This document shows, one piece after another, positions 116-37,879 of a DNA stretch of 38,299 nucleotides; the first letter of the stretch is position 1; the number at the start of each line of letters is the position of its first letter. Under the pieces are notes generated by a model. That model was not told the origin of the DNA. It did no database searches and saw only the letters and a program-made list of their open reading frames with translations. The position numbers and the translations under genes are program-made. The stretch comes from Gracilibacteraceae bacterium (GTDB taxonomy: Bacteria > Bacillota > Desulfitobacteriia > Desulfitobacteriales > Syntrophobotulaceae). The stretch spans positions 1 to 38,299 of the forward strand of contig JAISWK010000144.1 of assembly GCA_031270805.1 (NCBI GenBank). Direction: 5' to 3'.

Positions 116-395
116 AGTCCTGGAACCAACAAATGCTTTTTATTTTTATCATCGGGGTCTTTTTTGTACCCATAGGGCGGGTTAGGGCAAAAGTGTTCGC
201 CGGATTTACCCTTTGACGTGGATAGTATTTTGAAATCAGACCCGGACAAAGTTCGGGAAAAAGATATTGAAATATAAGGTAATTTCTAACCACATCCAAT
301 TGATTTTTGCTTTTGCGTCCGATATAATAAATAAAGCTATGCGATATATGCCATAATACAAAAACTGTCGTCCTGTTTGCAGGGGGTGAAAGTGA
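116..395. other. AT-rich gene-free stretch upstream of the small membrane protein
   Basis: No coding frame with a ribosome binding site was found here. From about 230 the composition turns AT-rich compared with the GC-rich genes to the right. The only functional signal seen is a promoter at 300-328. The sudden base-composition change beside a repeat is compatible with an insertion or rearrangement boundary. Confidence 0.5.
300..328 (+). promoter_or_regulatory. Sigma-A type promoter for the 396 gene
   Basis: TTGATT at 300-305 and a perfect TATAAT at 323-328 are separated by 17 bases. Transcription would start near 335, about 60 bases before the ATG at 396. A GGGGGTG ribosome binding site lies just upstream of that ATG. 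Confidence 0.65.
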
Positions 396-36344: not shown

Positions 36345-37391
36345 CTATCGCCTGACGTACTTGGTACTTCGGGCCGAGCCGATTTTTTCAATCGAACCCG
36401 CTTTCAGCATTGCCGCGATAACCGCTTCTACGGTGGTCGGGCTCACATCAGGCAAAATATAGCAGACCTCACGCTTGCTGATCGGGAGCAGACTGTTCAG
36501 CACGGTCGCCTCGATGCGTTCGCGTTTACTGACTTTTTTGCTGTTTACCAAGGCGAAGCGCTTATTAAGCTCCTTGTGGCAGCGGAGGAGCGTGGCGACA
36601 AAGTTCTCAATAAAAGGAAAGTAGCTGTTCTCTCCCGTGTGCCAACCGCTGGAGCTGTCTTTGAGCGCTTGGTAATAACCAGTTTTGTTGCGGTTGATTT
36701 GCTCCTCGAAGGAGATATACCGCCCCGCGTCAAAGCCGTTTTTATACAGCAGCAGGAGCGAAAAGATCCGTGAAATTCTGCCGTTGCCGTCCGCAAAGGG
36801 ATGGACGCAAAGAAAATCGAGAATAAAGCAGGGGATGAGAAGCAGGCGATTGATTGCGGAATTGTCGCGGGCGTCCATATAGGCGAGGATAAGCTGTTCC
36901 ATCGCTTCGGCGGTTTCGGCGGCGGGCGTGGGCTCGAAACGAACACGCCGCGCGCCGCTCGCGTCGACCTCCATGATCACGTTGTCGCTCTCCTTGTAAC
37001 GCCCGCCGTTATCGTTCGGCGAGTAGGACAGCATTATCTGGTGCAGGCGCAGAATGTCGCGCTCCCTCAGATCAAGCGCGGCATATTCGGAGTGAATAAG
37101 CGCGAGCGCGTCGCGGTATCCGGCAATTTCCGCTTCGTTGTGGTTCAGCGGCGCGGAGTTTTGGTTGACGATTTCGTTAATGCGCTCTTCACTCGTGACT
37201 ATGCCCTCGATCTCATTCGAACCCTTGACGCTCTGCACCTTGGCGATGCTCTCCAGGCGCGTGAAAACGTCGGGGTAATTTGTTTTGAGCGCGTTTTCGC
37301 GCTCGCGCAGTTCGCTGATGGCGCCGACCACGCTCACCAGTCCCGCCGGAAGCATCCCTTGTTCGAGAAACGAGTAATCGAAGTATCTCAT
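36345..37391 (-). CDS. Class II Fic-domain protein with C-terminal winged helix
   Basis: Fic enzymes usually transfer AMP to Ser, Thr or Tyr of target proteins. The 348-residue protein has the complete Fic motif HPFADGNGR (197-205). Its N-terminal inhibitory helix carries SNEIEG (58-63), fitting the (S/T)xxxE(G/N) motif, so it is a self-inhibited class II Fic. A Fic_N-like segment GRYKESDNVIM lies at 130-140. Residues about 285-348 look like a winged helix (SKREVCYILPDVSPTTVEAV). The ATG at 37391 is chosen for AGGGAG eight bases upstream; the frame runs nine codons further. It is the only intact - strand gene and has a dedicated promoter and operator pair. Confidence 0.92.
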   Translation of the reverse strand: MRYFDYSFLEQGMLPAGLVSVVGAISELRERENALKTNYPDVFTRLESIAKVQSVKGSNEIEGIVTSEERINEIVNQNSAPLNHNEAEIAGYRDALALIHSEYAALDLRERDILRLHQIMLSYSPNDNGGRYKESDNVIMEVDASGARRVRFEPTPAAETAEAMEQLILAYMDARDNSAINRLLLIPCFILDFLCVHPFADGNGRISRIFSLLLLYKNGFDAGRYISFEEQINRNKTGYYQALKDSSSGWHTGENSYFPFIENFVATLLRCHKELNKRFALVNSKKVSKRERIEATVLNSLLPISKREVCYILPDVSPTTVEAVIAAMLKAGSIEKIGSARSTKYVRR

Positions 37392-37408
37392 ATGCACATC
37401 TCCCTTGA

Positions 37409-37497
37409 GTATCTGCATATAATATAAGCGATTATGTGCAGATTGTCAAGAGGGAAAATTAAGTATCTGCATATAGATCCGGGGTTGATATGCAGAT
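37409..37497 (-). promoter_or_regulatory. Fic promoter with two tandem palindromic operators
   Basis: On the - strand, TTGACA (37449-37444) and TATATT (37426-37421) are 17 bases apart. Palindrome 1 has arms ATCTGCATATA near 37411-37421 and TATGTGCAGAT at 37433-37443. Palindrome 2 has ATCTGCATAT at 37465-37474 and ATATGCAGAT at 37488-37497. Both arms of the second copy lie 54 bases from those of the first. The first palindrome covers the -10, start site and spacer, the classic place for a repressor. Confidence 0.8.
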
Positions 37498-37606: not shown

Positions 37607-37879
37607 TTGAACATTCCATTGATTGACAACGCAAAAATAATGACAAAAGGGCAAGTCACTATTCCCAAAGAAGTCCGCTCCCTCTTGAAAGTATCTGAGG
37701 GTGACAGACTGACATTTATCTGTGAAGGCGATTATGCGATTGTGATGAATGCGAATATCTACGCCATCAAGACACTACAAAAGGCTATGACCGGCGAAGC
37801 GGAAAGAGCCGGACTGACATCGGAAGAGGATATTGTCGCGCTCTGCCGTGAGGTTCGGGCAGAGGTAGAGGGATTGTGA
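37607..37879 (+). CDS. AbrB/MazE/SpoVT-type antitoxin, toxin partner absent
   Basis: The 90-residue protein has the swapped-hairpin DNA-binding signature MTKGQVTIPKEVRSLLKVSEGD (residues 12-33). The C-terminal half (52-90) includes MTGEAERAGLTSEEDIVALCREVR. That tail is, as I recall, typical of antitoxins followed by a PIN-domain toxin. Here the next 60 bases hold no toxin start and the following sequence is remnants on the other strand. The start is TTG, six to seven bases after GAGGAGGA. It may regulate its own promoter and possibly the nearby Fic operator. Confidence 0.87.
   Translation: MNIPLIDNAKIMTKGQVTIPKEVRSLLKVSEGDRLTFICEGDYAIVMNANIYAIKTLQKAMTGEAERAGLTSEEDIVALCREVRAEVEGL

What the first reader, a model, noticed from the sequence alone, without database searches (positions are those of the whole stretch)
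37409..37497. Duplicated palindromic operator, offset by 54 bases, over the Fic promoter
Two palindromes with ATCTGCATAT arms are present, both pairs of arms offset by the same 54 bases. One overlaps the -10 and start site of a well-formed Fic promoter. This implies tight control of a toxic AMP-transferase by an unidentified repressor, perhaps the Fic winged-helix domain itself or the neighbouring AbrB-type protein.
Basis: partly seen in the sequence, partly recalled or inferred. Interest (0 to 1): 0.62.

Follow-up and report, generated by a model that had tools for sequence, protein, structure and literature searches.

The report
Self-repressing Fic enzyme's paired operators
Two copies of a DNA palindrome sit over and behind the promoter of a gene for an AMP-transferring (Fic) enzyme, and comparison of about 100 related genes indicates that the enzyme's own DNA-binding tail reads them to switch its gene off, a toxin-like enzyme acting as its own repressor across bacteria and archaea.

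Summary
In detail: ATCTGCAYAT-N13-ATRTGCAGAT occurs twice, exactly 54 bp apart. The proximal copy brackets the -10 of the fic promoter. These are the only two such sites in the genome. The same operator lies upstream of fic orthologs in more than a dozen phyla, including archaea: 64 of 80 upstream regions carry it, against 0.05 expected from shuffles. In all 44 loci with two palindromes 35-65 bp apart, the spacing is 42-45 or 52-56 bp, one helical turn apart, and at least six switches between the two are needed on the tree. More diverged Fic proteins keep the position and the N13 spacing but carry different arms. Among all 11-residue stretches of Fic, divergence of the winged-helix recognition helix (about residues 315-327) tracks arm divergence best; spacer and flanking DNA show no such signal. 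No neighbouring gene is conserved, and the AbrB gene occurs at no other fic locus. Best reading: stand-alone class II Fic, autorepressed by its own C-terminal wHTH, with two dimers binding on one DNA face. Precedent: CccR (Fic-HTH autorepressor, other arms, N26). New here are the phased double operator, the breadth of conservation and the operator/helix co-divergence. Binding, repression and toxicity remain untested.

The parts
37411..37443 (.). Proximal operator O1: ATCTGCATAT-N13-ATGTGCAGAT; overlaps the promoter spacer, -10 and start site of fic
   Evidence: same position and spacing in fic orthologs
37465..37497 (.). Distal operator O2: ATCTGCATAT-N13-ATATGCAGAT, exactly 54 bp behind O1
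   Evidence: second operator at 42-45 or 52-56 bp in 44 loci
37444..37449 (-). -35 element TTGACA of the fic promoter
   Evidence: TTGA at the same place in the family consensus
37421..37426 (-). -10 element TATATT of the fic promoter, inside the O1 spacer
   Evidence: TAaAaT in the family consensus
37400..37406 (-). Shine-Dalgarno AAGGGAG of fic
   Evidence: read from sequence
36345..37391 (-). fic gene, 348 aa class II Fic AMP-transferase with C-terminal winged helix
   Evidence: PF02661 E 1.3e-13; HPFADGNGRISR at residues 197-208 and SNEIEG inhibitory motif at 58-63; AlphaFold2 model pLDDT 89
36351..36527 (-). codons 289-347: winged helix-turn-helix domain (H289-298, H306-312, H318-331, two-stranded wing)
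   Evidence: model secondary structure
36399..36440 (-). codons 318-331: recognition helix, the Fic segment whose divergence best tracks operator-arm divergence
37607..37879 (+). Divergent AbrB/MazE-like gene (neighbour, not part of the system)
   Evidence: PF04014 and TIGR01439 hits; absent from other fic loci

Best explanation
The two palindromes are operators for the Fic protein itself. A Fic dimer places the winged helices of its two C-terminal domains on the two arms of O1, 23 bp apart. This covers the -10 and start site of the fic promoter and keeps RNA polymerase off. A second dimer binds O2 on the same face of the DNA, five helical turns behind (four in other lineages), and probably binds cooperatively to sharpen repression. 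When Fic is scarce, or is drawn off the DNA by a signal not yet known, the promoter opens. Shown here by sequence comparison: the operator, its conservation, its near-exclusive link to fic, the phasing, and the co-divergence of arms and recognition helix. Inferred: binding, repression, cooperativity and the role as a toxin or defence enzyme.
For: Conservation: 64 of 80 fic upstream regions carry CTGCATAT-N12-14-ATATGCAG with at most 2 mismatches, against 0.05 in shuffles; only 2 further hits in 584 kb of flanking DNA. They come from a dozen bacterial phyla and two archaeal phyla. Motif first: of the places found in 399 genomes of the phylum, every N13/N14 place but one lies just upstream of a fic ortholog; the two N12 places do not; 0 reversed-pattern controls. 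Own genome: both best sites are at fic. Geometry: consensus TTGAtTtTCTGCATATAAaaTG.TAaAaTATATGCAGAAAg.gg. Phasing: 44 of 44 double operators at 42-45 or 52-56 bp. Co-divergence: diverged Fic proteins carry other palindromes at the same place and spacing; a partial Mantel test over 98 loci puts residues 317-327 first of 338 windows, rank 1-2 after cleaning, with no signal in the spacer (rank 158) or in the 12 nt upstream of the arm (rank 312). Sister clades on the catalytic-domain tree: helix DVSVTTIEAVL with CTGCATAT arms (L101, L103) against xKT(V/I)EL with CTACCTAA-type arms (L093, L095-L098, L105). No neighbour gene in more than 5 of 81 loci. Precedent: CccR binds its own promoter through its HTH and represses it (PMC9755527).
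Against: No binding or expression data. L033 (73% identical Fic) and L087 (54%) have no recognisable operator, and some loci have only one. Within Fic proteins at least 44% identical to the window's, the peak shifts to residues 297-310 (helix 1 to helix 2 of the same domain) and window 317-327 drops to rank 21 (316-326 is rank 6). The Mantel ranking is descriptive, not a phylogenetic p-value, and arm register was chosen by an automatic rule. In CccR the arms are 26 bp apart, not 13, so the dimer geometry cannot simply be carried over. One N13 motif place (G295) is not near a fic gene.
Confidence: 0.87

Rival explanations
1. The neighbouring AbrB/MazE-type protein is the repressor that binds the palindromes, as an antitoxin-like regulator of fic.
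For: It is encoded next door, divergently, and belongs to a DNA-binding family.
Against: No other fic locus carries it, yet the same operators are there. Its own promoter-like region carries no arms (read). Arms track the Fic recognition helix.
Confidence: 0.03
2. An unlinked host regulator, with fic as one member of a wider regulon, reads the palindromes.
For: Cannot be excluded by sequence alone; one motif place (G295) is away from fic.
Against: The only strong sites in the genome are at fic. The operator stays with fic in many unrelated phyla, whose host regulators would differ. Arms follow the Fic helix.
Confidence: 0.06
3. The palindromes act as RNA hairpins or as ends or attachment sites of a mobile element rather than as operators.
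For: Long inverted repeats with partly complementary flanks (a 22-nt arm in L002).
Against: O2 and the upstream arm of O1 lie upstream of the predicted start site and are not transcribed from this promoter. Both copies lie on one side of the gene. Spacing is helically phased and the -35/-10 register is fixed.
Confidence: 0.02
4. Fic binds the operators to activate transcription, or to regulate its own enzymatic state, rather than to repress.
For: DNA binding stimulates the activity of Coxiella CbFic2 (PMC10628234).
Against: O1 covers the -10 and start site, a repressor position; CccR represses from comparable sites. The promoter is near consensus and would need no activator.
Confidence: 0.06

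Closest known systems
CccR of Yersinia pseudotuberculosis (Fic-HTH autorepressor, PDB 7XUX; PMC9755527)
   Same: Fic AMP-transferase with N-terminal inhibitory motif and C-terminal HTH; palindromic operator over its own promoter; represses itself as a dimer.
   Different: Only weak sequence similarity (E 1.9e-6, HTH not aligned). Arms AGATAATCAT spaced N26, a single operator, and a secreted effector; here CTGCATAT-type arms spaced N13 and two phased operators.
8UQU, Fic family protein of Bordetella bronchiseptica
   Same: Closest solved relative; near full-length sequence match including the wHTH (E 7.6e-72; best Foldseek hit).
   Different: Only the N-terminal domain is solved; no function or operator found in the papers searched.
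Sofic / SoFic anti-phage defence protein (PADLOC SoFic; Shewanella SO_4266, E. coli EcSofic)
   Same: Same domain order; PADLOC SoFic profile matches residues 35-346 (E 1.6e-33); dimeric, with a C-terminal domain that affects toxicity (PMC12249575).
   Different: NCBIfam SoFic equivalog cut-off not met (40 of 550 bits); EcSofic has a downstream antitoxin AS1, whereas no conserved neighbour is seen here.
CbFic2 of Coxiella burnetii (PDB 8CIL; PMC10628234)
   Same: Class II Fic with C-terminal wHTH that binds DNA and dimerises on it.
   Different: Studied with random DNA; no operator reported in the passages read.

Membership tests
Fic (PF02661) AMP-transferases | Fic fold and HxFx(D/E)GNGRxxR motif | tested here: met
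   PF02661 E 1.3e-13; HPFADGNGRISR; Foldseek hits to Fic structures
Class II Fic | (S/T)xxxE(G/N) inhibitory motif N-terminal to the Fic core | tested here: met
   S58-N-E-I-E62-G63; S58 and E62 invariant in 41 sequences
Fic-HTH autorepressors (CccR type) | C-terminal wHTH in the Fic protein | tested here: met
   model: H289-298, H306-312, H318-331, wing
Fic-HTH autorepressors (CccR type) | Palindromic operator over the protein's own promoter | tested here: met
Fic-HTH autorepressors (CccR type) | Two 10-bp arms spaced by 26 bp | tested here: not met
   spacing is 13 (or 14) bp
Fic-HTH autorepressors (CccR type) | Protein binds the operator and represses transcription | not testable with these tools
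   only indirect: co-divergence of arms and recognition helix
Sofic anti-phage defence | Match to the PADLOC SoFic profile | tested here: met
   E 1.6e-33 over 312 residues
Sofic anti-phage defence | NCBIfam SoFic equivalog cut-off | tested here: not met
   40.2 of 550 bits
Sofic anti-phage defence | Protects against phage by abortive infection | not testable with these tools
   needs an infection assay
Type II toxin-antitoxin module | Conserved partner gene | tested here: not met
   no neighbour shared by more than 5 of 81 loci

The most novel reading that the evidence does not exclude
A large, horizontally spread family of stand-alone Fic enzymes, in bacteria and archaea, are one-protein switches: enzyme and repressor in one chain, with two helically phased operators bound by a Fic tetramer. 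Catalytic state (ATP/AMP occupancy, AMPylation or a phage trigger) and operator occupancy would be coupled through the C-terminal domain, so that the event that activates the enzyme also lifts its repression.
Probability: 0.25. Interest if true: 0.75.

Novelty: new variant of a known kind. Interest (0 to 1): 0.52.

Why it matters
One autorepressing Fic enzyme was known in detail (CccR). This comparison points to autorepression as the common mode of control in a whole wHTH-Fic subfamily spread over many phyla, gives the operator sequence and its promoter register, and suggests a specificity code: CTGCATAT arms with helix x(T/S)T(V/I)E, CTACCTAA with xKT(V/I)EL, CTCCATCA with KVT(V/I)ER. It makes the question of how such enzymes are kept off without an antitoxin directly testable, and the double operator gives a prediction about higher-order assembly.

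Tried and rejected
AbrB-type repressor: absent from other loci. Conserved partner or antitoxin gene: none. Wider regulon: no other strong sites in the genome. RNA hairpin or mobile-element end: position and phasing argue against. Motif places not at fic: G060, G295, G361 and G097; no fic hit near them. No paper was found for 8UQU, and no paper describing these operators. The first arm register was ambiguous and was redone with a position penalty and shift-tolerant distances.

Full report
Observation. Two palindromes of the form ATCTGCAYAT-N13-ATRTGCAGAT lie at 37411-37443 and 37465-37497, offset by exactly 54 bp. Six arm matches (up to one mismatch) lie in the window against 1.1 expected, and the whole palindrome occurs only twice in the 2.69-Mb genome, both times here. 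With three mismatches allowed, the other places in the genome are at the background rate. The near-consensus promoter TTGACA-N17-TATATT on the minus strand (37449-37421) drives fic. The -10 sits in the spacer of the proximal palindrome and the predicted start site in its right arm. The fic start is best read as ATG 37391, behind AAGGGAG.

The gene. The 348-aa product carries the Fic motif HPFADGNGRISR and a class II inhibitory motif SNEIEG. An AlphaFold2 model made from 41 aligned relatives (mean pLDDT 89) ends in a winged helix with helices 289-298, 306-312 and 318-331 and a two-stranded wing. The best structural relatives are 8UQU (Bordetella), SoFic, CbFic2 and CccR.

Conservation. Orthologs from genome contigs and relatives carry the same palindrome in front of fic. 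By a fixed rule 64 of 80 upstream regions have it, against 0.05 in shuffles, with two hits in 584 kb of other DNA from the same loci. The loci span a dozen bacterial phyla and two archaeal ones. Searching with the motif alone in 399 genomes of the phylum gave seven genomes and no reversed-pattern control; all N13 and N14 places except one (G295) lie directly before a fic ortholog. The aligned promoters of 35 loci give TTGAtTtTCTGCATATAAaaTG.TAaAaTATATGCAGAAAg.gg: the left arm follows the -35 and the right arm follows the -10.

The 54-bp offset. In 44 loci with two palindromes 35-65 bp apart the offset is 42-45 (18 loci) or 52-56 (26 loci), never between. The classes differ by one helical turn, and at least six changes between them are needed on the catalytic-domain tree. 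The window's 54 is the commonest value. I infer that two Fic dimers bind the same face of the DNA and touch each other; this step is inference.

Who reads it. Three results point to Fic itself. First, nothing else is shared: no neighbouring gene family occurs in more than 5 of 81 loci, and the AbrB-type gene of the window occurs at no other fic locus. Second, more diverged Fic proteins have palindromes at the same place, mostly with the same N13 spacing, but with different arms, such as CTACCTAA, CTCCATCA, CAGTGCAT, TCGCATAA and GCCCTTAA. Third, across 98 loci the part of Fic whose divergence best explains arm divergence, after the rest of the protein is allowed for, is residues 317-327, the recognition helix, first of 338 windows; the second peak is residues 297-309 of the same domain. 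After removal of doubtful loci the peak stays at 315-327, whereas the operator spacer and the DNA beside the arm give no signal there. Within proteins at least 44% identical to the window's the peak is at 297-310, still in the wHTH, and the recognition helix is weaker, as expected where it hardly varies. A clean contrast is the pair of sister clades L101/L103 (helix DVSVTTIEAVL, arms CTGCATAT) and L093/L095-L098/L105 (helix with xKT(V/I)EL, arms CTACCTAA or close to it) on a tree made without the wHTH.

Comparison with what is known. CccR of Yersinia pseudotuberculosis is a Fic-HTH protein shown by footprint, ITC and reporter to repress its own promoter through AGATAATCAT-N26-ATGATAATCT (PMC9755527). 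The present protein works like it by inference but has other arms, N13 spacing and a second phased operator. The PADLOC SoFic profile matches over most of the protein while NCBIfam's SoFic equivalog cut-off is not met, so a defence role is possible but not shown. The literature searches found no description of these operators, within an open-access library only.

Limits. Nothing here measures binding or repression. L033 and L087 lack a recognisable operator, many loci have one operator only, and the Mantel ranking is descriptive because loci share ancestry. The best-supported reading is autorepression by the Fic wHTH (0.87); cooperativity of the two operators is less certain (about 0.65).

Noticed in passing
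L005 (G001:C175), 1498-1930: In a genome of the same genus the fic gene has lost its N-terminal part, with a junction inside the proximal operator, but three of the four arms remain: a decayed fic with surviving operators (or an assembly junction).
   Followed up: partly
window 37607-37879: AbrB/MazE-like gene with its own promoter-like TTGCAT-N17-TACAAT and no toxin partner visible before the window ends.
   Followed up: partly
window 37390-37399: A fifth, weaker half-site (ATGTGCATAT on the minus strand) overlaps the fic start codon region.
   Followed up: no
G361:C81:13706-13735 and G097:C108:17797-17826 (L122, L123): Same arms with N12 in two genomes of one genus, not at fic; in L122 beside a gene that looks like polynucleotide phosphorylase, with longer complementary arms, probably a different hairpin.
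   Followed up: partly
L130-L143 (viral contigs) and phage record PV036453.1: Related Fic genes (about 34-44% identity) occur on viral contigs and in a phage record; several of the viral-contig genes have palindromes of their own upstream.
   Followed up: partly
plasmid records NZ_CP046661.1, NZ_CP043940.1 and others: Relatives at about 39-41% identity are carried on lactobacilli plasmids; their upstream regions were not examined.
   Followed up: no
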